Source: Arcobacter sp. FWKO B (GTDB lineage Bacteria > Campylobacterota > Campylobacteria > Campylobacterales > Arcobacteraceae). Taken from it: a DNA stretch of 64,000 nucleotides. A model generated the notes under the pieces. The model saw nothing but the letters and a program-made list of their open reading frames with translations, had not been told where the DNA came from and ran no database searches. The stretch is from NCBI RefSeq assembly GCF_014844135.1, contig NZ_CP041403.1:1364001-1428000 (forward strand). Direction: 5' to 3'. Positions 19,117 through 54,377 of the stretch are shown one piece after another. How positions within the stretch are numbered: the stretch's first letter is position 1; each line of letters starts with the position of its first letter. Both the position numbers and the translations under genes were made by a program.

Positions 19117-19178
19117 ACACCCCCCCTGTATTGAGTCGGTGATCGCATAAATAGATAAGTTGAGCAATCTTTTCTTTT

Positions 19179-19246
19179 GGCAACTCGGCTATCTTACAAT
19201 CAAGACCCGTGGCTTTCCGTCCTTACCTCACGATAAGTTTGGCTTT
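19179..19246 (-). ncRNA. Cyclic di-GMP-I (GEMM-I) riboswitch aptamer
   Basis: On the minus strand the core reads AAAGCCAAAC, a hairpin TTATC-GTGA-GGTAA with a GNRA loop, GGACGGAAAGCCACGGGTCT, a short loop, and AAGATAGCCGAGTTGCC. This matches the GEMM-I consensus (CAAAC, GNRA-capped P1b, GGACGCAAAGCCACGGGTCT, AGATAGCCGGGTTGCC) almost base for base. A -10 box (TATAAT) lies 33 bases upstream. Bases AGTTG at the aptamer's 3' edge can pair with CAACT downstream (near 19157-19163), a possible switching helix; no terminator stem was found, so control of translation is more likely. Confidence 0.9.
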
Positions 19247-19278
19247 AACATTGTTATTGTTAGAGTATTTTAATACTT

Positions 19279-22317: not shown

Positions 22318-22614
22318 ATGCAAAAGCAAGATATATTAAACTATTTAAAATCAAATCAAGAATACTATCATAATCAATTTGGAATAAAATTTATCGGTTT
22401 GTTTGGCTCTTTTGCAAGAGATGAAGCAACTGATAGTAGCGATATAGACATTTTATATAAAATTGAAAAAGATAAAAAACTATCAATGTTCAAGTATCTT
22501 AAAATCACCAAACAACTTGAGGATTTGTTCAATAAAAAAATCGACTTAGTAAGAGATGAGACATTAAAGCCCCAAATAAAAAGCTATATTCAAAAGGATA
22601 TTAGCTATGTTTAA
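22318..22614 (+). CDS. mntA: MntA-type minimal nucleotidyltransferase antitoxin
   Basis: 98 residues. The polymerase-beta nucleotidyltransferase motif GLFGSFARDEATDSSDIDILYKI (GSF...DID) is intact. In MntA-HepT pairs this enzyme adds AMP to the toxin and disables it. Its end overlaps hepT by 8 bases. A TATAAA box lies near 22244 after TTTTG, and GGAGATGGAG precedes the ATG. Confidence 0.85.
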   Translation: MQKQDILNYLKSNQEYYHNQFGIKFIGLFGSFARDEATDSSDIDILYKIEKDKKLSMFKYLKITKQLEDLFNKKIDLVRDETLKPQIKSYIQKDISYV

Positions 22615-22966
22615 GAGTAATAGAGACTATAAACTATATATTCAAGATGTAGCTAATGAGTGTAAAAATATTAAAAAATTTGTTGAAAATATAACTTATG
22701 AAGAATTCACGGAAAATATTGAAAAGGTTTATGCTGTTGCAAAAGCATTCGAGAATATCGGAGAAGCAGTAAAGAATATACCAAAAGAGCTTACATCAGA
22801 GTATCCAGAAATTCCATGGAGTGAAATAGCCAAAATGAGAGATGTTTTAACTCATCATTATTTTGGAGTAGATGATAAAGTTTTATGGGATACATTGGGT
22901 GAAGATTTTGAAGAATTTGAAAAAGTTATAAACAAAATGATAAATAAGTCAGATAATAAATCTTAG
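22607..22966 (+). CDS. hepT: HepT-like (DUF86) toxin
   Basis: 119 residues, all-helical, with the HEPN signature RDVLTHHY (R-x4-H-x-Y, near residues 92-99). HepT toxins are RNases in the HEPN superfamily; the Tyr of this motif is the site modified by MntA. The pair is intact and overlapping, so it is a full type VII toxin-antitoxin module. It sits at the left border of the accessory region and a decayed second copy lies 1.3 kb downstream. Confidence 0.88.
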   Translation: MFKSNRDYKLYIQDVANECKNIKKFVENITYEEFTENIEKVYAVAKAFENIGEAVKNIPKELTSEYPEIPWSEIAKMRDVLTHHYFGVDDKVLWDTLGEDFEEFEKVINKMINKSDNKS

Positions 22967-23046
22967 TATTGAAGAAGAATATCCGTAAGAAAAGTCAGAA
23001 ATAAAGTGCCATAAAGAGGAAGTGGTATCGCTAAAGCGATAAAAAG

Positions 23047-23070
23047 GAACGCCGACTTTAGTCGGTATTC
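23047..23070. repeat. REP-like palindrome
   Basis: Arms GAACGCCGAC and GTCGGTATTC pair at 8 of 10 positions around TTTA. Similar in style to the palindrome at 23982-24007; both are the kind of sequence mobilised by RAYT transposases. Confidence 0.45.
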
Positions 23071-23130
23071 TTGAGAATCTAGAAATGGGTCAAACCCCAA
23101 AATATATAAATATCAACATTAAACATACAT

Positions 23131-23155: not shown

Positions 23156-23401
23156 AAATCATATCATAAACTTGAAATTTATTTCAAAAATATGATAGAT
23201 TCAAGGCAAGTTTGCTAAAGCAACCGCTATTCGCTACTTTTGCAATCTTTTTTATAGTGAAATGTTTAAGAACACCTTATTTAAGGTATTTGTTGTTGTT
23301 TTGATATACGACATTTTATATATGTTATTTATTGATTTTTTATGGTGTTTTATATATAATGTAGGTTCAATAAATAGTTATATTAAGAATAAAGGACAAA
23401 A

Positions 23402-23858
23402 ATGAAATATATAATGTTAAGTATAATACTTATGTTAATGTTTACTACAAATGTTACGGGAGGAATTAACTAAAAAAACTGTACAAGCATTAATCACTAC
23501 AGTTGAATCAATAGTAAAAACTCATAATATAGATCAATTAGCTAAACTGTTAAGTGAAGATATTAATATTAAAATAAATATTAAAAATAATGGAAATAAC
23601 CAAACTATGAAAATTACAAAATCACAATATTTGTCAATGCTGAAGCAAGGATGGGAAATGTGTGAAAATTATACATATAAAATATCTGATATTAATATTA
23701 CAATAAAAAATGGACTAGCTTATGTAACTTCCAAGCTCGAAGAAACAATGATTTGTAATAATCAACAAATCAATAGTACGAGTTATGAAAAGTCAATTAT
23801 TAAATTAATTGATAATAAATTAAAAGTAACTGAGATAACAGCTAGTATGAAGCTGTAA
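23402..23858 (+). pseudogene. Secreted NTF2-like protein split by a frameshift
   Basis: ATG at 23402 begins a good signal peptide (MKYIMLSIILMLMFTTNVTG) that stops at 23473. A second frame from 23451 encodes the mature part (KKTVQALITTVESIVKTHNI ... KLKVTEITASMKL, to 23858), about 130 residues with the alternating helix-then-strand pattern of NTF2/SnoaL-like domains. Overlap of the two frames at 23451-23473 suggests a single-base shift. It may be dead, or the mature domain may now be made as a cytoplasmic protein. It has the size of a typical integron cassette gene and is followed within three bases by an attC-like structure. Confidence 0.55.
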
Positions 23859-23860
23859 AA

Positions 23861-23928
23861 TATAACAAATCAGTGGAGCCAATAAATTATCCTGTGGGCA
23901 ATTTATTGGCTCATTTTAAACGTTATGT
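23861..23928 (+). other. attC-like recombination site (or terminator hairpin)
   Basis: TATAAC (23861-23866) and GTTATG (23922-23927) can pair as R-type ends. Between them a 13-bp perfect stem GAGCCAATAAATT (23876-23888) / AATTTATTGGCTC (23900-23912) has an 11-base loop. The unpaired stretches between the ends and the stem are 9 and 9 bases, as in the classic aadA1 attC (14 bases from AAC to the end of its AGCC, 10 from GGCT to GTT, the same as here). It begins 2 bases after the stop of the cassette-sized gene. A simple terminator remains possible. Confidence 0.4.
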
Positions 23929-23981
23929 TCATTTACTTATATAAAAGGAATTAAAGATGGGACGAGCTAAAGAATATTTCT

Positions 23982-24007
23982 CGTTCCCAATGTCCTCGTT
24001 GGGAACG
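23982..24007. repeat. REP-like palindrome
   Basis: CGTTCCCAA (23982-23990) / TTGGGAACG (23999-24007) with loop TGTCCTCG. This form of GTTCCCA palindrome is widespread near RAYT transposase genes. Confidence 0.6.
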
Positions 24008-24125
24008 CATATAAAAGCATGAATGTAGGGAGTGTATAATGATAATTAGGAAAAAGGGGACAGGTATAATTTTAGAAAACAAATTCTTTTAAAGTCTTTA
24101 AAACAATATAAAGGAAAACTAGATG

Positions 24126-24527: not shown

Positions 24528-26010
24528 ACTCAACTTTCGCAGATAAAACCTAACTGTTTTTTAGTGTAAACCCTGAGCATTAGGATAATCTGTTCCAAAT
24601 CTTTATTTCTCTTGACAATTTCTTGGGCTTGAACTAGTTGTTCTAATATTTTTATAAATAGTTCCATCGAAATTGCAAGGGTTTCAAGCTGACACTCTAA
24701 ATTTCTGAAAAGTTCTCCTAATGTTTGTGGTTCATTATTGATACGATTGATATAGCTTGTAAGGTTATAAGCAAGGAAAGATAGAGTAATCCTAGCAATG
24801 AGTGCTTCGTAAATTCTATTTTCTTCTTTACCAAATTGGAAATACTCTCGCAAATCTTTATATCCTTGTTCAATATTCCATCGTTTTTTATAGGTATTGA
24901 TAATTTCAATATCTGATAAATTTGTATTTGTTGAAATAATTGAAATAAGATTATCTTTTGTTTTTATAAAAACTATTTTAATTCTACCAAGTGTTTTATG
25001 TGTAGTTGTAGTTGAGGCATAAGAGTATTTAATAGAATTATAGTTACCTAGTTTAGAAGATTTATGACTTTTTACTCGAGTGTACAGTCTTTCAAGTGTT
25101 TTATATTTTCCTGTAAATTGCCAAATTCTATTTGATTTTGATAATCTTGCAATTACATCAAGACCTTTTTCTTTTATTTCATAAATAAAATTTGGTTTGG
25201 CATACCAACTATCAACAAGTAAATAATCTGCATATATTCCAGATTTTAATACTCTATTTACCATTTGAAGAGCTAAATTATTTTTACTATTATTACCTTC
25301 AACTCTTCGTTTATAAGCATTACTTTTATGATGAAAATAGTTTTCATTAACATTTACAATTTGATTTTTGTTGTAGTTAATAGAAAAATCTAACATCATA
25401 TCAGTATAACAATCACTATAATTTAGTGATACAATATTCAAACCTTTTACAGTTCTATGTTCCTTATTATTCCAAAGATTTCTACAGCTTCCTTCTATAA
25501 ATTTTCCTCTTTTAATTTCAACTGTGTCATCAATAATTAATACTCTAGTATCAGCAGCCTTTTGAAGTATATGAAGTTTTGAGATTAATTTTACAGAACT
25601 TAATAGTAATAGTTTTCTCCAATTATATTTACTGTTTTTCAAAAGTCTATAATATACATCCTTTTTATAGCTATCAGAGCTTTGTTTCATAAATGTAGAG
25701 ATTCTTTTATTAATGATAAACATATATAAAAAATGTAAAATTATTAAGTATGGTGATTTTCCAATGTCTCTTTTTATAAAATTACTCTGTTTTAAAATAG
25801 AACTAAAATTTATATCTCTTAAAACAGATAATACTGGATTTTTTAATACGTTGTTCATAGCAGTTTGGATAAAATTATCAAGTCTCATAAAAAAGCCCTT
25901 TATATAGTTGATTGTCGTGATGAAATTATATCAAAAAGTACTTATTTATGGGCTTTATTGTAGCTTTTACATATAAGAAATTAATGATTTTTTATGTGCG
26001 AAAGTTGAGT
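24528..26010 (-). mobile_element. IS4-family insertion sequence, 1483 bp
   Basis: Ends: ACTCAACTTTCGCAGATAAAA (24528 inward) and ACTCAACTTTCGCACATAAAA (26010 inward, minus strand), agreeing at 20 of 21 positions. One transposase gene fills the element and its stop codon lies inside the left inverted repeat. With an intact transposase, intact ends and a clean 5-bp duplication, it appears complete and recent. It separates the toxin-antitoxin debris from the CDI locus. Confidence 0.88.
24530..25888 (-). CDS. IS4-family DDE transposase
   Basis: 452 residues. DDE core: first Asp in RVLIIDDTVEIKRGKFIEG (about residue 121), second in YADYLLVDSWYAKPNF (about 227), Glu in YKKRWNIEQGYKDLREYFQFGK (about 340). 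The insertion domain between the second Asp and the Glu is mostly beta strand, as in IS4. It is full length and unbroken, with a leader of 122 bases to the right end of the element. Confidence 0.9.
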   Translation of the reverse strand: MRLDNFIQTAMNNVLKNPVLSVLRDINFSSILKQSNFIKRDIGKSPYLIILHFLYMFIINKRISTFMKQSSDSYKKDVYYRLLKNSKYNWRKLLLLSSVKLISKLHILQKAADTRVLIIDDTVEIKRGKFIEGSCRNLWNNKEHRTVKGLNIVSLNYSDCYTDMMLDFSINYNKNQIVNVNENYFHHKSNAYKRRVEGNNSKNNLALQMVNRVLKSGIYADYLLVDSWYAKPNFIYEIKEKGLDVIARLSKSNRIWQFTGKYKTLERLYTRVKSHKSSKLGNYNSIKYSYASTTTTHKTLGRIKIVFIKTKDNLISIISTNTNLSDIEIINTYKKRWNIEQGYKDLREYFQFGKEENRIYEALIARITLSFLAYNLTSYINRINNEPQTLGELFRNLECQLETLAISMELFIKILEQLVQAQEIVKRNKDLEQIILMLRVYTKKQLGFICES

Positions 26011-26089
26011 AAATAATTTAATATTTATCTTTATTTAAGTGTAAAATAATTAAAATGCCAATTTATTATTTATGATTAAAAGGTATTGA

Positions 26090-27712
26090 ATGAGTTTTTA
26101 TATAAAAGTTTTGTTGATTTTGTGTTTTAGTCACATTTTATATGCATCAACGAATGTTGTTGAATTGATTGATAAAAAAGAACATTTTGAAAAACAAAAA
26201 GAGATATTTGAAAACTTAGAGCAAAAGCAAGATACATATATCCAACGATACGATATACAAAAGCCTGAATTGCTCGAAGTTAAAGATGAAGAGTGTTTTG
26301 TTGTAAAAAGCATAAAAGATGAAGGGATTACATTACTTTCTAATAAAAAAGAGTCTTTATACAAAGAGTATATCGGAAAATGTACTACTGTGACTGAACT
26401 TAACAATTTGACTCGTAAACTGACTGCTCTTTATATGGAAAAAGGTTATATTACTTCACAAGTATATCTTAAACCTCAAAACATATCACATGGAGATGTA
26501 ATACTATTTGCCATAGAAGGAAAAATAAAAAATATAATGCCAAATCAGAGGTATATAAATAGTGCTTTTGTAGGACAAAAAGGGGAATACCTTAATATTA
26601 GAAATCTTGAAAATGCTATAGAAACAATCAACCGCTTGGAAAGTAATCATGCGAAAATGGATTTGGTACCGAGTGATGAAGTGGGTTATACTGATATAAA
26701 TATTGAAAATAATACTACATCAAGAATAAATGGGGTATTTGGTATTAATAATTTTGGGACAAAGAAAACAGGAGATAAACAAGGCTTTATTGTCTTAAAT
26801 ATTGATAATCCTTTCGGGATAAATGATAAATTTACAGTTAGTATAAATAGTACAGACAAACACTATAAAGATGAAAACTCAATAGGTAATGGTTATGAGT
26901 ATACTATCCCTTTTGAAAGACTACTTACAACATTTAGCTATAGAGAAAGTAAATATAAACAATTTGTAAGTGGAGGTATCAATAAGTATGTATCAAGAGG
27001 TAATACCAAGACATATTCATTTGGACTTAATTATAACCTATTTCACAATCAATCACATAAAGTTACAATAGGTTCAAATATATCTCAATATCGAGCAAGA
27101 AACTTTTTGAGTGATGTACTTATTGAAACCTCAAGTTATGATTTATCTAAGATAAATACAATGATTGACTATTTGTATCAAAATACGGGCTTTTATTCTT
27201 ATATAGGTTTTGGCTATACAAAAGGGACGGATTGGTTTAATGCACATAATCCAACAGAATTAAATGAAAAATACTCTTTATATACTATAGATTTATCTGC
27301 GATGAAACGGTTTGAGTCTTTTGCATATTCTTTGAGCGGACATTATCAACACGGTAACAATCAGCTTTTTAGTACGAACCAAATAAGTATAGGTGGACAC
27401 TATAGTGTAAGAGGTTACCAAAAAGAAGGGCTTAGCGGTAATAGTGGTTTTTATGTGCGAAACGAACTTTCTTTGAACCCAACGGTGAAGTTGTTTGATA
27501 GTGTGGAACAGAGCTATTTCGTGGGATTTGATTATGGAAAAATTCAAAAAGAAAAAGATACAAACGGCGGTAAACTCTATAGTAATGTAGTAGGAATGAA
27601 ATTTAAAAAAGACAAGTTAGATATGTCGGTTTATTATGCTACGCCTCTGGCAAAGAAAGATGTATCTAAAACTGAAAAATTTTGTGGTTTTTCTGTGTCT
27701 TATAGGTTTTAA
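26090..27712 (+). CDS. Two-partner secretion outer-membrane transporter (FhaC/CdiB/ShlB family)
   Basis: 540 residues. Signal peptide to about residue 19; a helix-rich plug region with predicted coil (KKEHFEKQKEIFENLEQKQ); POTRA 1 (CFVVKSIKDEGITLLS...KCTTVTELNNLTRKLTALYMEKGYITSQVYLKPQNI) and POTRA 2; then a 16-strand barrel. Barrel motifs VRGYQKEGLSG (residues about 446-456) and FVGFDYGKI are the TpsB signatures. The protein ends in an aromatic residue (SYRF), as needed for Bam insertion. It exports the giant exoprotein two genes downstream. It is separated from the anchored mini-Rhs gene by only 3 bases. Confidence 0.93.
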   Translation: MSFYIKVLLILCFSHILYASTNVVELIDKKEHFEKQKEIFENLEQKQDTYIQRYDIQKPELLEVKDEECFVVKSIKDEGITLLSNKKESLYKEYIGKCTTVTELNNLTRKLTALYMEKGYITSQVYLKPQNISHGDVILFAIEGKIKNIMPNQRYINSAFVGQKGEYLNIRNLENAIETINRLESNHAKMDLVPSDEVGYTDINIENNTTSRINGVFGINNFGTKKTGDKQGFIVLNIDNPFGINDKFTVSINSTDKHYKDENSIGNGYEYTIPFERLLTTFSYRESKYKQFVSGGINKYVSRGNTKTYSFGLNYNLFHNQSHKVTIGSNISQYRARNFLSDVLIETSSYDLSKINTMIDYLYQNTGFYSYIGFGYTKGTDWFNAHNPTELNEKYSLYTIDLSAMKRFESFAYSLSGHYQHGNNQLFSTNQISIGGHYSVRGYQKEGLSGNSGFYVRNELSLNPTVKLFDSVEQSYFVGFDYGKIQKEKDTNGGKLYSNVVGMKFKKDKLDMSVYYATPLAKKDVSKTEKFCGFSVSYRF

Positions 27713-27715
27713 AAG

Positions 27716-28672
27716 ATGAGAAAGATTGTAATTTTATCATTTGCATTGATTTTGATTGCAAGTATTTATTATTTTTCTCAAGATAAAACAGCACTGTATA
27801 TAGTAAATAATAGTGATAGATATACATTTACAAAAACAAATCATATAAAAAGTATCGGAAATATAGAGTATATATATGATGATAACGGGTACAAAATAGC
27901 AAAAAAAGTAGATTTTCATGTAAAAGAACGGTATGTTTGGTTGGGAGAAGGTCAGTTAAAAGCAGTACTTGATGATAAAGGTAATGTATTAAGAGAATAT
28001 ATTTATGAAAATAAGTATTCTATACTCCCTAAAGGAATGACCATCAACGGTGAGAGATACGGTTTTATCTATAATCCTATGAAAAGTCTTCGTTTGGTTG
28101 TAAAGGAAAAGCAAATAGTAAAAATTATTGATTATGACCATAAAGGTTTGATTTTACAAGATACAAATAAAGAGTTAAAAGTCGATTTTGGCTATGCAGG
28201 TGGGATATGGGATGAAGATAGCAGGTTGTTGTTTTATACCCAAGGTGTATATGAGCCTATAAAAAGCCAATGGATTACAAAAGTCAAAGATATTGATATT
28301 ATAGAAAATTTAAAACAATTAAATGCCACAAAAGAAGATGAAGTTTATAAATGCAATGCAACTTTAGATGTTTATTATCATGCGTATTTATGTACAAGCA
28401 ATCAATGTGGAGGATTATATGCCACAGATTATTTAAACTACTTCAATGGCAATGGAGCAATGATAGATAATTCGTATTATTTCAATCATAATTATTGTAA
28501 GTCTTTGGATTTATCCGATGAATATGACAAAAAACTTTTTTCATCTTGTGTAAAAGAAAATATCAAACCAAAAAACAATCTTGTTTTTGACGCATTTAGG
28601 CATAACTGCCATCATGCGATGGATGAAATCATAGAACAATGTAAACAAACTTCTTTAAAAGGTAAATCATGA
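27716..28672 (+). CDS. Anchored mini-Rhs protein with Cys/His C-terminal domain
   Basis: 318 residues between the transporter and exoprotein genes. Residues 4-20 form a membrane anchor or signal. Residues 50-190 follow the Rhs repeat-associated core: RYVWLGEGQLKAVLDDKGNV, LREYIY, YGFIYNPMKSLRLV, DYDHKGLILQDT, FGYAGGIWDEDSRLLF and VYEPIKSQWITKVKDID are degenerate counterparts of the classic YxWxxxGLxRAxxD...PGRWTxxDPI pattern. Residues 210-318 are a separate domain with seven Cys and the cluster FRHNCHHAMDEII near 294-306, resembling a papain/NlpC-like or toxin-type active region. A full Rhs shell needs far more repeats, so this is a relic or a small specialised form. It overlaps the exoprotein start by 4 bases. 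Function unknown; a second effector or a maturation factor is possible. Confidence 0.6.
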   Translation: MRKIVILSFALILIASIYYFSQDKTALYIVNNSDRYTFTKTNHIKSIGNIEYIYDDNGYKIAKKVDFHVKERYVWLGEGQLKAVLDDKGNVLREYIYENKYSILPKGMTINGERYGFIYNPMKSLRLVVKEKQIVKIIDYDHKGLILQDTNKELKVDFGYAGGIWDEDSRLLFYTQGVYEPIKSQWITKVKDIDIIENLKQLNATKEDEVYKCNATLDVYYHAYLCTSNQCGGLYATDYLNYFNGNGAMIDNSYYFNHNYCKSLDLSDEYDKKLFSSCVKENIKPKNNLVFDAFRHNCHHAMDEIIEQCKQTSLKGKS

Positions 28673-31600
28673 AATTTAAACAAAGTATAGCTATTTTTGT
28701 AAGTTTTATATTGGTTGCCGAACAAACTGCTTTGTATGCTGGTGGTATAGAAGTGGATACCCAAGCACCAAGTGCAAATAAAGCAACACTACTAAATGCA
28801 CCAAATAATGTCCCTATAGTAAATATAGTAACCCCAAATTCAAGTGGACTTTCACATAATAAATTTACCAATTTCAATGTGGATAATAAAGGGCTTATTC
28901 TAAATAACTCAAAAGTAATAACAGATACTCAACTAGCAGGATATATATCATATAATCCAAATCTAACAGGCAATGAAGCAAAACTAATCTTAAATGAAGT
29001 AACAAGTACAAATAAAACATTGCTTCAAGGGTATACGGAAGTAGCAGGAAAAAGTGCAGATGTTATAATAGCAAATCCAAACGGTATCAGTGTAAACGGC
29101 GGTGGGTTTATAAATACTCCAAATGCAACTTTAACTACGGGTACACCTATGCTAAACGGTGGTGTTCTTCAAGGATTTGATGTAAGTAAAGGCAATATCA
29201 TAATAGAAGGAAGCGGATTTAACGGTAACAATATAGATAAAGTAAATCTTTACGCTAAAGCCTTGGAAATAAATTCCAAAATTTATGCTAATGAGCTAAA
29301 TGTAGTAACAGGTGAAAACAATATTTTACAAGATGGCACCGTAACATCTAAAAATCAAAGCGGAAGCGGTATATCAATAGATTCTACTTTGCTAGGAGGT
29401 ATATACGCAAATACTATCACTTTAAAAAGTACGGATAAGGGTATAGGGGTAAATCTTCCTCCTGAGGTTTTTGCACAAAACTCACTGTATTTAAGTAGTG
29501 ATGGAAATATAGTAGTATCAAAAGTATTAGCCGATAATCAAATAAATATAACTTCCAAAAGTGAAAAGATAAAATTAACAGGTGATATAACAGCAGATAA
29601 TATAACTTTAAACGCAGGAGATGAAATGTCAATATGTGAAGATAAAATTATCAAAGGGTTTAAAAATATTGATATAGCATCAAAAAGTTTATCAAACAAA
29701 GGGGAGATAAATGCACTTGATGGTATCCAAACTTCTGTAGATATTGAAGAGAGTATTGATAATCAAGGTCTAATAGGCGGTTATGATTTGGATATCAAAG
29801 CAAAAAATATAGACAATAGTGGAGCATTGTATTCCAAAAATAATATGAAAGTTACCGCACAAAATCTTGATAACTCTGGGCTAATATTGAGTAATAAAGA
29901 TATAGAACTTCTTATTCAAAATACCCTTACAAACCAAAAAGATGGTACAATATACAGTGAAGGAAATCTATCTATAGCATCTGATTCTACAAAGGATAAG
30001 ATAAATACAATCAACAACTACGGACTTATCCAATCGGATAAAAATATAGATATATCGGCAAATACTCTTAATAATACTGCACCCACACCGTCATTTAATA
30101 ATACTACTACAAGTCAAACAAAAACAGTATCAAGGGGTGGCTCAAATGACTATGATATAGTAACTACAACTATTCAAATACAAAGTATGGATATACCTAC
30201 TGATCCTGCTTTGATTTTGGCAATGGGTGATATAAATATAGATGTAAATACTTTAAATAACAACTATTCGCTTATTTCTTCCAATGAAGATATAGTGCTT
30301 AATGCAAATACGGTTAATAATATAGGAAAGGTACTAGTTTCTACCACAACAACCGTCACAAAACAATATCGTGATGAGAGATATTGTTCATCTTCTGGAC
30401 CATCTGGTACTTGTTTCAATCACAAACACAGAGCTGCGTACAGAGGTACATTAACATCTACAAAAACAGAGCGAGTACCTATGGTAAACTACGGTATTCA
30501 GGCAAAAAAGAGTATTACAGGTAATGTAGTAACATTAAATAATATCAGTGACCAGCTTAGTGGTTCTTTGAGTGATCAACAAATACTTAATAAACTAAAT
30601 ACGATAGATACTATCGAAAATGGAGTGTTCGGCTTACAAAAACTAATATTAGTTTTACAGACAAATGATGATGATATTATAACTAGTCTAAATAATGATG
30701 ATATAGAGACTTTAATATCTCAAATTAGTACACAAGATGATGTAATAGCGTTCAAAGATAATTTGGTTACTTTGAAACAAAGCGTTCAAACTGCTATTGA
30801 TGAAGATACGGCTACTCTTGATATATTGGAAAGTATCGTAAGTTCTATTAAATCACTTGGAAGTGTAGGCGGTATATCTCATGATACAAGTGAGGTTGAA
30901 AACACTATTAGTTTACTAAAAAACAATATTATCCAAGCACAAAGCTATATCACTAGTTTTGAGGCACTAAATGATACTTTGGTAACCATTACCGATGTGA
31001 CTAATAATAAGCAAGAATTACTAGATATAAATAGTGCTATGAATAATATCTTTACACAAAATTCACAGTTATTAGCCTCTCTTGATATAAGTGGATTAAA
31101 TAGCGGTTTGGAAAATGCAAGTAATACTTTGAGAAATGAAGTGAATACTGCACTTGATTTGAATGAAAATATAGAGTATAAAATCATTACCAACGATGAA
31201 GGATTGTATAAAACTAATACTAACAATTCACTTTCATCTGTAAGTGGTGTGAATTATAGCTCAAACAGTAGTGCAATAGTGGATGATATAGTATTACCAA
31301 AGGGGAAATATGGGTTGTTTTTGGTAAATAAGGCAACCACACACCCTTATTTGATAGAATCAAATCCACTATTTACAAACTATAATACCTTTATAAGCTC
31401 TGATTATATGCTAGATAAGCTTGATTTCCGACCAGAAAAGACACTCAAACGCTTAGGTGATGGAATGTATGAGACACAATTTGTAAATAATAGCATTATC
31501 CGCTTAAGTGGAGGTAGATACTTAGATGGGTATAGTTCAGATATGGAGCAATTTCAAGGACTTATGGATAACGCACTGAGTCTTCAAAGTTCTCTTGGAT

Positions 31601-34257
31601 TGAGGTTTGGTATAACTCTTAGTAAAGAACAAATAGCACAACTAAATAAAAATATAGTGTGGATGGAAGAAAGAGTAATAGATGGACAAAGTGTACTTGT
31701 CCCTGTAGTATATCTTGCTTCAAATAATATCTCAACCGATGGAGCAAAAATACTAGCAAATGGAGATATCAATCTTAAGGTAGAAGATAGACTTTTGAAT
31801 GATGGATTGATAGTGTCAAGAGGAAATATTGTAGTTAAATCAGGTAGCCTTACCAATGAAAACGGTGTAATAGTAGCAAATGATAATATGAATATAGAAG
31901 TAAATAACTCATTAAAAAATTTAAGTGGAAATATAGTATCATCAGGTGATATGAATATAAAAGCAAATAATATCCAAAGTAAGGCTCTAAGTGAGGATAA
32001 AACATATAAATACCAACGAGGAAAACAAACCAGCACCTTGCAAGGTAAATCTTCAAATTTTATCTCAGGTGGTAATATAACTATGCAAACACAAGATAAT
32101 ATGACATTTGAAAATACCAATATAAAATCAAACGAGAATATAACTCTTACTTCCAATAACGGTAATGTAACCATATCCTCCCAAGAGAAAAAAGAGGATT
32201 ATAACTTCAACCTAAAAAATGGATATAATAAAGGGAGTTCTATAGCAAATATAGCTTCAAATGTAGATGGTAAAAATGTAACTATAAACGCAAACCGAAT
32301 AAATGTAATATCATCCAACTTAACCTCCAAAGAAAACCTAACCCTCCAAGCACAAGAAGGGATAAATATAGAAGCTTTAAATGATATGGAATATAAAGAT
32401 ACAAAAATAAAAACCTCAAAAGGTTTCATAGGTAAAGAAACAAAAAAAGATGAGACTTCCAAAAGTACAGTAATATCCTCAACCCTAAATGGGAAGAGTA
32501 TAAACATAGATGCCCAAACACTATCTATACAAGGATCAACCCTCACAGCAGAACAAGCAGTAATAATAAGTGAAATAATGGAATTAGTATCTTTGAAAAA
32601 TAGTGAATATGAAAACCACTTTAGAGATAAGTCAGGAGTATTCACCCGTACAATAGCATCTAAAGGTAGTGTTAGTGAAGAGATAGTTCCAGCATTGATA
32701 CAAGTACAAGAACAGCTTAAATTTAATAAAAAAGATATAACAGACCAACTAACAACCGATAATATCATAAAAACACTTTCCTCAGAATATAACCTAACCC
32801 ATGAACAAATCAACCTAGTAAAAGCAACACTCAATAACCAACAATGGGATGATAAGACAACATCCCTTTCTGGACTTGGAGCAATTATCGTAGCTATTGT
32901 TGTGACAGTTATTACAGCAGGAGCAGGAGCTGCAGTAGTAGGAGCTGCAACAACCACCGCAACAACCGCTGCAACCACAGCCACACTTACCACCACCATA
33001 CAAACAGCAGTAGCCCAATCTCTAGTAACAGGAGTAACAACCCAACTAGCAACTTCAGCAATCACAGGCAATAGCTTCAAACTAGATACAGATTCACTTA
33101 TCAAAGGAGCTGTAAGTGCAGGAGTACTAACTTATGCTAATACATTGGCATATAACCAGTTTGATATAAATACAACCCCACAACTAACTAATACACAACT
33201 AGCTCAAAAGACCCTAATAGATACCACAACCCAAACAGCAATCTATGGAGGAAGTTTTACAGATAATCTTCTTTTTAATGCAGGAAATACCGTACAAGGT
33301 AAGCTTTCAAATCTAATTGGAGATAATTATATAAACGGAGAGTTAAATTATGCTACCCATAAATTAGCTCACTTAGGTTCAGGAGCAATAGGTTCAGCTA
33401 TAAGAGGAGAGGATTTGAAAAGTGGAGCACTAGGTGCTATTACAGGAGAAGTGATAGGGGAAGCTGTAGGGACTAGACTTACAAATGAAAATTATTATAC
33501 TGAAAAAGAAAAAGATATAATAAGACTTAGTTCACAACTAGGAACAGTGATGACAGCAAGTGCATTAGGTAAAGATGCAAAGGCTGCTTTGAATAGTTCT
33601 ATAATATCTGTTGAAAATAATATAATATTACATGCCCCAGGGACATTTTCAAATGCTAGTGATGTTGATGAAAGTTTTAAAGAAGCAGTTAAAAAATTCT
33701 ATAATGATGATGAGTTAGAAGTGATAGATAATGACGGAAAAAAACTAGAAAATAATGATGTAGCTAGACAACAACTAGCTGATAAAATTGTAGATAGGAT
33801 AATTGAGATTAAAAAAATAAACCCAAATGAACCTATATACTTAACAGGACATTCTCATGGTGGGAATGTACAAAAAATAGTTACTCAAAAGCTAGTAGAA
33901 CAAGGTCACACTGGTATAGTTGATTCGATAATGTATTTGGGTACACCAGTTCGCAATGACTATGTGACTAATAATTTGGCATTAACACAAAATGCAAGTG
34001 TTTTGAATGTTTATGATAAGGACGATATGGTTCAAAGTCTATTTGGAGGAATTGATAATTATGGTTTAAAGTTATCTGATTATAAAAACTTTCCATCGAA
34101 GCAATTAATTATCAATAATTCAAAAGTACAAAATATTCAAGTTGAATCTCCTAAAACAAGTTTTAATGAAAGTTTTTATTATAAATTTTATGGAGATCAT
34201 ATTCAAATTGATAATCCTGAAGTTATTCAGCAAATAGAAAGGGTTGTTAATGAATAA
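28669..34257 (+). CDS. FhaB/CdiA-type exoprotein with alpha/beta-hydrolase toxin tip
   Basis: 1862 residues. Signal peptide 1-24; TPS (haemagglutination) domain about 25-280 with IIANPNGISVNGGGFINT; beta-helix repeats; a conserved mid-region RLGDGMYETQFVNNSIIRLSGGRYLDGYSSDM near 930-960; more repeats; a hydrophobic pre-toxin stretch (GLGAIIVAIVVTVITAGAGAAVVGA); and the VENN motif at residues 1648-1651 (33610-33621). After VENN, 211 residues form the toxin tip: GHSHGG with Ser1729, Asp1785 or 1786 (YDKDDMV) and His1844 (GDHIQI) make a lipase-like Ser-Asp-His triad. CdiA-type proteins deliver such tips into neighbouring cells on contact. It is followed by its immunity gene with an 8-base overlap. 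Confidence 0.92.
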   Translation: MKFKQSIAIFVSFILVAEQTALYAGGIEVDTQAPSANKATLLNAPNNVPIVNIVTPNSSGLSHNKFTNFNVDNKGLILNNSKVITDTQLAGYISYNPNLTGNEAKLILNEVTSTNKTLLQGYTEVAGKSADVIIANPNGISVNGGGFINTPNATLTTGTPMLNGGVLQGFDVSKGNIIIEGSGFNGNNIDKVNLYAKALEINSKIYANELNVVTGENNILQDGTVTSKNQSGSGISIDSTLLGGIYANTITLKSTDKGIGVNLPPEVFAQNSLYLSSDGNIVVSKVLADNQINITSKSEKIKLTGDITADNITLNAGDEMSICEDKIIKGFKNIDIASKSLSNKGEINALDGIQTSVDIEESIDNQGLIGGYDLDIKAKNIDNSGALYSKNNMKVTAQNLDNSGLILSNKDIELLIQNTLTNQKDGTIYSEGNLSIASDSTKDKINTINNYGLIQSDKNIDISANTLNNTAPTPSFNNTTTSQTKTVSRGGSNDYDIVTTTIQIQSMDIPTDPALILAMGDINIDVNTLNNNYSLISSNEDIVLNANTVNNIGKVLVSTTTTVTKQYRDERYCSSSGPSGTCFNHKHRAAYRGTLTSTKTERVPMVNYGIQAKKSITGNVVTLNNISDQLSGSLSDQQILNKLNTIDTIENGVFGLQKLILVLQTNDDDIITSLNNDDIETLISQISTQDDVIAFKDNLVTLKQSVQTAIDEDTATLDILESIVSSIKSLGSVGGISHDTSEVENTISLLKNNIIQAQSYITSFEALNDTLVTITDVTNNKQELLDINSAMNNIFTQNSQLLASLDISGLNSGLENASNTLRNEVNTALDLNENIEYKIITNDEGLYKTNTNNSLSSVSGVNYSSNSSAIVDDIVLPKGKYGLFLVNKATTHPYLIESNPLFTNYNTFISSDYMLDKLDFRPEKTLKRLGDGMYETQFVNNSIIRLSGGRYLDGYSSDMEQFQGLMDNALSLQSSLGLRFGITLSKEQIAQLNKNIVWMEERVIDGQSVLVPVVYLASNNISTDGAKILANGDINLKVEDRLLNDGLIVSRGNIVVKSGSLTNENGVIVANDNMNIEVNNSLKNLSGNIVSSGDMNIKANNIQSKALSEDKTYKYQRGKQTSTLQGKSSNFISGGNITMQTQDNMTFENTNIKSNENITLTSNNGNVTISSQEKKEDYNFNLKNGYNKGSSIANIASNVDGKNVTINANRINVISSNLTSKENLTLQAQEGINIEALNDMEYKDTKIKTSKGFIGKETKKDETSKSTVISSTLNGKSINIDAQTLSIQGSTLTAEQAVIISEIMELVSLKNSEYENHFRDKSGVFTRTIASKGSVSEEIVPALIQVQEQLKFNKKDITDQLTTDNIIKTLSSEYNLTHEQINLVKATLNNQQWDDKTTSLSGLGAIIVAIVVTVITAGAGAAVVGAATTTATTAATTATLTTTIQTAVAQSLVTGVTTQLATSAITGNSFKLDTDSLIKGAVSAGVLTYANTLAYNQFDINTTPQLTNTQLAQKTLIDTTTQTAIYGGSFTDNLLFNAGNTVQGKLSNLIGDNYINGELNYATHKLAHLGSGAIGSAIRGEDLKSGALGAITGEVIGEAVGTRLTNENYYTEKEKDIIRLSSQLGTVMTASALGKDAKAALNSSIISVENNIILHAPGTFSNASDVDESFKEAVKKFYNDDELEVIDNDGKKLENNDVARQQLADKIVDRIIEIKKINPNEPIYLTGHSHGGNVQKIVTQKLVEQGHTGIVDSIMYLGTPVRNDYVTNNLALTQNASVLNVYDKDDMVQSLFGGIDNYGLKLSDYKNFPSKQLIINNSKVQNIQVESPKTSFNESFYYKFYGDHIQIDNPEVIQQIERVVNE
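32402..32457 (+). repeat. Recombination anchor A in the main exoprotein
   Basis: 56 bases (encoding KIKTSKGFIGKETKKDET) that recur at 36615-36670 near the start of orphan module 2 with one mismatch. It lies about 1.2 kb before the VENN motif. Confidence 0.85.
32496..33135 (+). repeat. Long duplicated pre-toxin block in the main exoprotein
   Basis: About 640 bases (from GAGTATAAACATAGATGCCC) nearly identical to 34896-35543 in orphan module 1, with a few substitution clusters and one 12-base length difference in the Ala/Thr-rich part. Homology ends abruptly at TGTAAGTGCAGGAGTA. Confidence 0.9.
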
Positions 34258-53768: not shown

Positions 53769-53908
53769 ATTAATGATAGAAACTATGAAATATTGACAAT
53801 TATAATAAAATCGTGATTTTTGTGCTATTTTGTTATATATTTTTATATATTATTTAATAATCTTTAAGGTTTCTTTTCATAAAATATGTTTTGAATAAAT
53901 AGTTGTCT

Positions 53909-53914
53909 TATACT
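53909..53914 (+). promoter_or_regulatory. Candidate -10 box
   Basis: TATACT after TTGTCT, 22 bases before the start of the next small gene. Confidence 0.35.
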
Positions 53915-53935
53915 ATATATGATGAAAGGATTAAT

Positions 53936-54277
53936 ATGAAAAAGTTTACATCTATCATAATACTAATGGTATTGATGTCAGTAAGTTTAAATGCACAAAA
54001 CGGAGGTAAGAGACTAACTCTTGTTGAAGAAAATCACGCTGAGTTGTATTTCAATGGGGTGAAATATATATTAGACAGCTATATAGTAATGTTTGAAAAT
54101 CCTTATTATATTATTATTGAACGAGAAGATAAATCCCCTATTGAATATCAAGAGGCAATTGATATATCAATTGATTATATTAAACCAAGAGGATGTACTT
54201 CACCATTGGAACGACTTCCAAATTTAGATAGACATAATGAAGATAAAACGAAATGGATGATAGGTATTTCCTGCTAG
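53936..54277 (+). CDS. Small secreted protein
   Basis: 113 residues with a signal peptide (MKKFTSIIILMVLMSVSLNA). The start at 53936 has AAGGA 7 bases upstream; an upstream ATG at 53903 would spoil the signal. Mature part about 93 residues with two Cys (GCTSPLE and the C-terminal ISC). No family recognised. Followed by a clear terminator. Confidence 0.6.
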   Translation: MKKFTSIIILMVLMSVSLNAQNGGKRLTLVEENHAELYFNGVKYILDSYIVMFENPYYIIIEREDKSPIEYQEAIDISIDYIKPRGCTSPLERLPNLDRHNEDKTKWMIGISC

Positions 54278-54299
54278 AGCAAGATAATAAATGATCATC

Positions 54300-54324
54300 A
54301 CTAGCAAATAAAAAATTTGCTAGT
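54300..54324 (+). terminator. Intrinsic terminator
   Basis: ACTAGCAAAT (54300-54309) / ATTTGCTAGT (54315-54324), loop AAAAA, followed by TGTATTTT. It ends the accessory region transcript. Confidence 0.75.
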
Positions 54325-54377
54325 TGTATTTTGACTGTTAATTTTAAATGTTATGTGTTTGACAATTGGTCACATAC

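What the first reader, a model, noticed from the sequence alone, without database searches (positions are those of the whole stretch)
23402..23928. Lone integron-like cassette: small secreted gene ending in an attC-like site
The structure at 23861-23928 has complementary TATAAC/GTTATG ends, a 13-bp stem, an 11-base loop and the same spacer lengths as the classic aadA1 attC. It begins 2 bases after the stop of a cassette-sized gene. Integrons are rare in this phylum, and no integrase is visible here.
Basis: partly seen in the sequence, partly recalled or inferred. Interest (0 to 1): 0.5.

Follow-up and report, generated by a model that had tools for sequence, protein, structure and literature searches.

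The report
Integron cassette on integrase-less landing site
A short gene in this bacterium sits in a genuine integron gene cassette, plugged into a leftover integron docking site with its own promoter-like sequence; the genome holds several such docking sites scattered around but no integron integrase, which suggests that gene-capture platforms can be scattered and outlive the enzyme that fills them.

Summary
The attC-like structure is real and is an attC. A covariance model built only from attC sites of other genomes' integrons scores window 23860-23928 at 80 bits, E 3.5e-14 over the whole genome. The cassette (23378-23922) is joined, exactly at AATAG^TT, to a leader with a promoter-like TTGATT-17-TATAAT. 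This leader is homologous to the sequence between intI and the first cassette in relatives (probably Arcobacteraceae): it is Pc plus attI. The first 7 bases from the crossover (GTTATAT) are the exact reverse complement of the cassette's own R'' (ATATAAC), as in a true circularised cassette.

It is not alone: five leader copies with cassettes or cassette remnants are scattered over this 2.24-Mb single-contig genome (two in this window), and no intI was found. In relatives and here, 27 of 39 inspected leader copies lack a complete adjacent intI. One orthologous platform carries different cassettes in two species of the genus. Best reading: an intI-less remnant of a chromosomal integron, one of several orphan Pc-attI platforms. 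intI was probably mostly lost in place; servicing in trans is possible but unproven. The gene's frame is broken after the signal-peptide-like start.

The parts
23240..23377 (+). Leader = Pc + attI remnant. Continuous homology to the intI-attI spacer of relatives; a weaker stretch continues upstream to about 23107 after an insertion at about 23190-23239. About 215 reference positions upstream are covered, so homology stops short of where intI would start.
23332..23360 (+). Promoter-like Pc: TTGATT (23332-23337), 17 bp, TATAAT (23355-23360); the -10 box is among the best conserved positions in 27 orphan leaders, the -35 is not
   Evidence: consensus match only; the region has as many promoter-like matches as shuffles; activity not tested
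23368..23379 (+). attI core CAATAAATAG^TT; crossover G23377|T23378; homology between leader copies ends here
23378..23922 (+). Integrated gene cassette, 545 bp, begins TTATATT and ends at the G of the attC R' box
   Evidence: sequence; rule R'' = reverse complement of G + cassette start, 7 of 7
23402..23473 (+). Start codon preceded by AAAGGA and 23 signal-peptide-like codons, then stop; out of frame with the body
23451..23858 (+). Body ORF (135 aa), weak DUF4440 match, E 2e-4, 22.2 bits, below the 25.2-bit cut-off
23860..23928 (+). attC site: R'' ATATAAC 23860-23866, 13-bp core stem, 11-base loop, R' GTTATGT 23922-23928
53819..53902 (+). Second, more diverged Pc-attI leader in the window (71% identity), ends AATAAATAG^TT at G53902|T53903
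53903..54350 (+). Second cassette: small ORF with signal-peptide-like N-terminus (53936-54277, no family match) and a decayed attC-like end at about 54282-54356 (AAGATAAT...GTTATGT); attC model score only 8.7 bits, not significant

Best explanation
This is a one-cassette remnant of a chromosomal integron: a cassette promoter (Pc) and attI site with one gene cassette that ends in an attC, without the integrase gene. Mechanism: an IntI tyrosine recombinase, once present in the lineage, joined the folded attC of a circular cassette to attI at G^TT, placing the DUF4440-like gene behind Pc. No IntI is found in the genome now, so the cassette should be fixed. It is one of five such orphan Pc-attI platforms in this genome. 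Shown: attC, attI homology, exact junction, cassette self-complementarity, no intI over cut-off in the single-contig genome, other platforms. Inferred: past IntI action, Pc activity, loss of intI mainly by deletion in place.
For: attC: model R1 from 37 attCs of 9 intI-linked loci of other genomes scores 80.0 bits here, E 3.5e-14; close look-alikes in those arrays. attI: leader 82.6-82.8% identical to the intI-attI spacers of G202 and G291, where intI starts about 330 bp upstream of the crossover. Junction: of 39 leader copies in 19 genomes, 37 read AG^TT at the crossover (exceptions L109, L111) and then lead into different sequences. Cassette rule: 28 attC hits in 14 loci, mean 6.07 of 7 matching bases against 4.93 for permuted pairs, 0 of 10,000 permutations as high; 19 of 28 match at 6 or 7. 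No IntI: best TIGR02249 hit 49.5 bits against a 265-bit cut-off, and that search rings below cut-off in all 14 controls, so these look like other tyrosine recombinases. In-place loss elsewhere: in G122 and G206 the last 50 and 42 IntI codons abut a truncated leader; broken intI pieces in G309 and G410.
Against: No intI fragment was found within 1,500 bp upstream of any of the five own-genome leaders, so loss in place is not shown here. Left ends of orphan leaders vary (69-404 bp), but four copies in the congener G397 share nearly the same left end, reference position -146/-147, which simple independent decay does not explain. 9 of the 28 attC hits match the cassette rule at only 3-5 of 7. IntegronFinder/HattCI were not available; R1 is trained within the phylum and has only 11 base pairs, so part of its power is sequence likeness. 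A plasmid-borne IntI outside the assembly is not excluded.
Confidence: 0.88

Rival explanations
1. Distributed multi-platform integron: Pc-attI copies were spread without intI, and an IntI encoded elsewhere (now lost, or arriving on mobile DNA) loads cassettes into them in trans.
For: Genomes with an intI over the cut-off also carry leaders without a complete intI at other places (G202: five leader matches, one next to intI; G291: three matches, one next to intI). The G291:C4 platform (only the first 26 IntI codons left) carries four attC hits. The own platform at 93.9 kb and the orthologous one in G397 share both flanks (96.5% and 84.8%) and the leader, but the DNA between differs: three ORFs with attCs or remnants against one ORF with another type of attC. 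The fourth cassette of the own 1.568-Mb array matches the first cassette of intI-bearing G390 over 603 bp at 85.6%, starting exactly at the crossover in both.
Against: The present genome has no IntI over cut-off. Each of these observations also fits exchange that happened before intI was lost. IntI fragments beside 4 of 27 orphan leaders point to decay in place.
Confidence: 0.35
2. Off-target insertion: a cassette inserted by IntI into an ordinary genomic (attG-like) site.
For: Single cassette, no integrase nearby; attG insertions are reported (Loot 2024, seen only as a cited reference in PMC12901181).
Against: The left neighbour is not arbitrary DNA: about 138 bp are homologous to the intI-linked attI spacer of relatives and recur at four other own loci.
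Confidence: 0.03
3. The leader is moved as part of DeltaattI-type cassettes (gene followed by an attI in place of attC).
For: Leaders in direct repeat around ORFs: G397 L102 at 1456 and 2934, G206 L117 at 5857 (weak, 73.6% over 72) and 4986. DeltaattI cassettes are known and recombine in class 1/2 integrons (PMC12901181, abstract and section 5).
Against: At the shared G397 left ends the base before TTGCAAT is A, A, A and T, so there is no G^TT junction there; in this window the leader is followed by an ordinary attC cassette.
Confidence: 0.1
4. Plain transcription terminator with chance resemblance to attC.
For: It is a hairpin just behind a stop codon.
Against: No T-run and no terminator call there; 80-bit attC score; cassette self-complementarity; attI partner.
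Confidence: 0.01

Closest known systems
Chromosomal integrons of the same family and order (intI over the TIGR02249 cut-off in at least 34 of 397 phylum genomes)
   Same: Same kind of attI/Pc leader, near-identical attC sites, same cassette architecture
   Different: No intI here; single cassette; several platforms per genome
CALIN / single attC lacking integrase
   Same: attC-bearing cassette without integrase; CALIN origins proposed as intI loss, off-target insertion or rearrangement (PMC8618304 passages)
   Different: IntegronFinder 2 requires two attCs for a CALIN and does not detect attI outside class 1 (PMC9024848 passages); here the attI and promoter-like sequence are still attached
DeltaattI-type unusual cassettes of class 1/2 integrons (PMC12901181)
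   Same: Extra attI copies within arrays; direct-repeat leaders in G397 and G206 look like this
   Different: There mostly 14-18 nt attI fragments (one of 244 nt, one complete attI1) inside an array; here about 70-400 bp Pc-attI leaders scattered over the chromosome

Membership tests
Integron gene cassette | attC with R''/R' boxes and an imperfect inverted repeat | tested here: met
Integron gene cassette | R'' complementary to G plus the first bases of the same cassette (circular form) | tested here: met
   7 of 7 here; set of 28 against permutations
Integron gene cassette | Compact unit with one intact ORF | tested here: inconclusive
   545-bp unit; ORF body intact but signal-peptide start out of frame
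Integron gene cassette | Excision and insertion by IntI | not testable with these tools
   needs a recombination assay
Integron attI/Pc | Homology to the intI-adjacent attI of relatives and junction at G^TT | tested here: met
Integron attI/Pc | Promoter drives the first cassette | tested here: inconclusive
   consensus match and conserved -10 only
Complete integron | intI gene | tested here: not met
   best 49.5 bits against cut-off 265 in a 1-contig, 99.99%-complete genome
CALIN (IntegronFinder 2 definition) | At least two attC sites without integrase | tested here: not met
   One attC at this locus; the 1.568-Mb and 93.9-kb loci of the same genome have three and two R1 hits

The most novel reading that the evidence does not exclude
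In Arcobacteraceae the integron works as a dispersed system: several chromosomal Pc-attI landing sites without their own integrase, kept because each drives an expressed cassette slot, and refilled in trans by an IntI that is present only at one locus or only intermittently in the lineage.
Probability: 0.3. Interest if true: 0.68.

Novelty: new variant of a known kind. Interest (0 to 1): 0.5.

Why it matters
Integrons are usually described as one intI-attI platform with an array, and intI-less arrays as bare attC clusters. Here a whole promoter-plus-attI slot recurs at several chromosomal places without intI, each with its own cassette or remnant. attI outside class 1 is poorly described (PMC9024848, passage seen), and this group gives an attI defined by 39 natural copies with the crossover readable to the base. 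It makes testable whether IntI serves remote attI sites in trans. Some cassette genes on the other own platforms look defence-related (TIR, Mrr-type nuclease, NERD).

Tried and rejected
Rfam scan of the window at gathering threshold: only a c-di-GMP riboswitch. Terminator reading rejected. attG reading rejected because the neighbour is attI. The five own TIGR02249 hits lie in three tyrosine recombinase genes; I read these as XerH-like or phage-like by length and score (labels from recall, not searched). One search listed 14 leader-like places at E <= 0.1: five count as leaders; the ones at 146 kb and 1.294 Mb were read and dropped (no AATAG^TT with a cassette); the other seven (E 0.02-0.08) were not read. 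Relatives of the window cassette protein: none in 396 other phylum genomes at E <= 1e-4 (at most 10 candidates scored per genome), none on plasmids at E <= 0.01. A fixed left end of the leader (a discrete mobile unit) was sought: left ends vary from 69 to 404 bp, with a cluster only in G397. The second window cassette's attC is not supported by the model (8.7 bits, and a nearby unrelated stretch scores 10.5). Exact reverse-complement 7-mers downstream of leaders were first listed without requiring an attC; that list is weak by itself, and one search is the test with a control.

Selection to note: 37 of the 56 sites given by my attC finder in 12 intI-linked loci went into model R1 (length 68-73, AACAA near the start; the other 19, among them visible false positives and long attCs, were dropped before modelling). 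One of the 9 loci used (L058) has its intI in two pieces. The 39 leader copies are those in loci I chose to fetch, not all hits; three weaker BLAST rows (two in L049, one at L117:5857) were left out. The permutation test used 28 of 37 rows: three opposite-strand rows and six with E above 0.01 were dropped. Searches over genomes score only part of their first-look candidates (150 of 1,517; at most 5 per genome), so weak matches can be missing.

Full report
Observation. As single-stranded DNA it folds with z about -5 on both strands, 0 of 200 shuffles as good. The gene is less clean: the ATG at 23402 reads 23 signal-peptide-like codons and stops, while the body is open in another frame, 23451-23858, with a weak DUF4440 match below the curated cut-off.

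It is an attC. I collected attC sites from arrays next to intI in other genomes of the phylum and built model R1 from 37 sites of 9 loci, none from this genome. In the whole genome R1 gives 8 rows at E <= 1: the window site at 80.0 bits, E 3.5e-14 (and once on its opposite strand at 31.9 bits), three sites at 1.5647-1.5662 Mb, two at 92.5-93.4 kb, and one weak site at 1.2702 Mb, E 0.67 (150 of 1,517 first-look candidates scored). All lie in loci that also carry the leader described next. Among 60 genomes (this one and 59 relatives), 24 have an R1 match at E <= 0.001. Limits: R1 has 11 base pairs and is trained within the phylum, so it is not IntegronFinder's general model; it misses other attC types, such as the one in G397 L101 that I read by eye.

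The other half is attI with Pc. Comparing the window with the 1.568-Mb array showed a shared leader that ends exactly where the first cassette begins. In the own genome the leader recurs at 1568343-1568486 (89%), 93880-93999 (91%), 1270518-1270628 (79%) and 1417819-1417910 (71%; window 53819-53910). Of 60 genomes (own included), 31 have at least one match at E <= 0.001, many of them short and weak. In G202, G291, G355 and G358 a copy lies next to an intI, with intI starting about 330 bp upstream of the crossover. In 37 of 39 leader copies laid side by side the crossover reads AG^TT; beyond it the sequences differ (exceptions L109 and L111). In the 27 orphan copies the TATAAT box and the AATAAATAGTT core are highly conserved (1.88 and 1.82 of 2 bits against 1.29 overall); the -35 hexamer is not (1.13), and an unexplained TTATTT about 50 bp before the crossover is.

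The cassette closes on itself. From the crossover the window reads GTTATAT; its attC R'' reads ATATAAC, the exact reverse complement. Over 28 attC hits in 14 loci the mean match is 6.07 of 7 against 4.93 for permuted pairs, 0 of 10,000 permutations as high; nine of the 28 match at 5 or less. The second site of the 93.9-kb array matches only 5 of 7 and its attC looks truncated.

No integrase. TIGR02249 finds nothing over its cut-off in the one-contig genome; its best hit is 49.5 bits, and the same search rings below cut-off in all 14 control genomes. Phylum-wide at least 34 of 397 genomes exceed the cut-off.

How the platforms came to be orphan. Of the 39 leaders, 12 have intI at full length beside them (one of these, L058, in two pieces) and 27 do not; 4 of these 27 have intI fragments within 1,500 bp and 23 have none that tblastn finds, though some loci have less than 1,500 bp upstream. 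In G122 and G206 the IntI C-terminus abuts a truncated leader, and G309 and G410 hold broken intI pieces: deletion in place happens in this family. G406 has five intI matches, three over the cut-off, all five with stop codons inside, and leader matches near four of them, so whole integrons also occur in several copies. Of the 27 orphan leaders, 14 have an R1 attC hit at E <= 0.01 downstream on the same strand within about 2.8 kb.

Did orphan sites exchange cassettes? The own 93.9-kb platform and G397's share both flanks and the leader; between them the own genome has a 153-aa ORF, a TIR protein and a 194-aa ORF with attC sites or remnants, and G397 has one other ORF ending in GGCTAACAA..., the reverse complement of its own start. 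The fourth cassette of the 1.568-Mb array (a 159-aa ORF) matches the first cassette of intI-bearing G390 at 85.6% over 603 bp, beginning at the crossover in both. These show cassette movement between lineages with exact ends; they do not tell whether IntI acted in trans or before its loss.

Organism. G397 is called same genus and the others same family as the window, so Arcobacteraceae is my inference; the own record was not shown.

Literature. Searches of the held library with integron + attI + Arcobacter (11 listed of 11), attG + integron + cassette (20 of 60), integron/attC/CALIN/Epsilonproteobacteria (20 of 42), integron + Sulfurimonas + integrase (7 of 7), orphan or secondary attI terms (3 of 3), integron + Campylobacterota + gene cassette + attC (3 of 3) and integron + Arcobacteraceae (10 of 10) listed no title describing scattered intI-less attI platforms. 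I read PMC12901181 (abstract, section 5, passages) and passages of PMC9024848, PMC8618304 and PMC10295459 only, so the claim of novelty rests on these searches. PMC10295459 reports CALINs in Sulfurovum and Sulfurimonas (table passage), so intI-less attC clusters in this phylum are already in print.

Verdict. A true cassette with a true attC, on an intI-less attI/Pc platform, one of five in this genome. New variant of a known kind; interest moderate.

Noticed in passing
window 53819-54356: A second, more decayed Pc-attI leader with a small signal-peptide-bearing ORF and a degenerate attC-like end.
   Followed up: yes
window 23923-24010: After the attC the sequence TTATGTT...AAAAGGAATTAAAGATG looks like the start of a further cassette cut short by a repeat (23969-24071, 92% copy in G397 L102:6858-6959).
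   Followed up: partly
window 23008-23110: Dispersed repeat (core ...GACTTTAGTCGG...) upstream of the leader, 7 matches in the genome at E <= 0.001, itself included; a similar stretch precedes a G397 leader (L102, about 1330-1360).
   Followed up: partly
L101, L102 (two copies), L106: Four leader copies in G397 share nearly the same left end, reference position -146/-147 before the crossover, with three different flanks; unexplained.
   Followed up: partly
L014:6690-10350 (minus): Array of five units without intI: one unit without ORF (by eye), then Mrr-type nuclease, Hjc/Shedu-like (weak), 159-aa unknown, NERD plus zinc ribbon. The ORF-less unit resembles the first cassettes of G393 and G129 by eye.
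   Followed up: partly
L047:5818-8187 (minus): Type IIG restriction-modification-like protein (PADLOC E 3.6e-184) directly behind the decayed platform at 1.27 Mb.
   Followed up: no
window 19175-19252 (-): c-di-GMP-I-GGC riboswitch, 69.2 bits.
   Followed up: no
window 22318-22966: Adjacent small genes that look like a MntA/HepT-type toxin-antitoxin pair (by motif, recalled, not searched).
   Followed up: no
window 24530-34257: Transposase-like ORF (24530-25888, minus) followed by two-partner-secretion-like genes (26090-27712 and 28669-34257); identity by eye only.
   Followed up: no
L134 (CAMCYD010000012.1): A record labelled Helicobacter pylori PMSS1 MAG carries the exact attI core searched for; the label may be wrong.
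   Followed up: no
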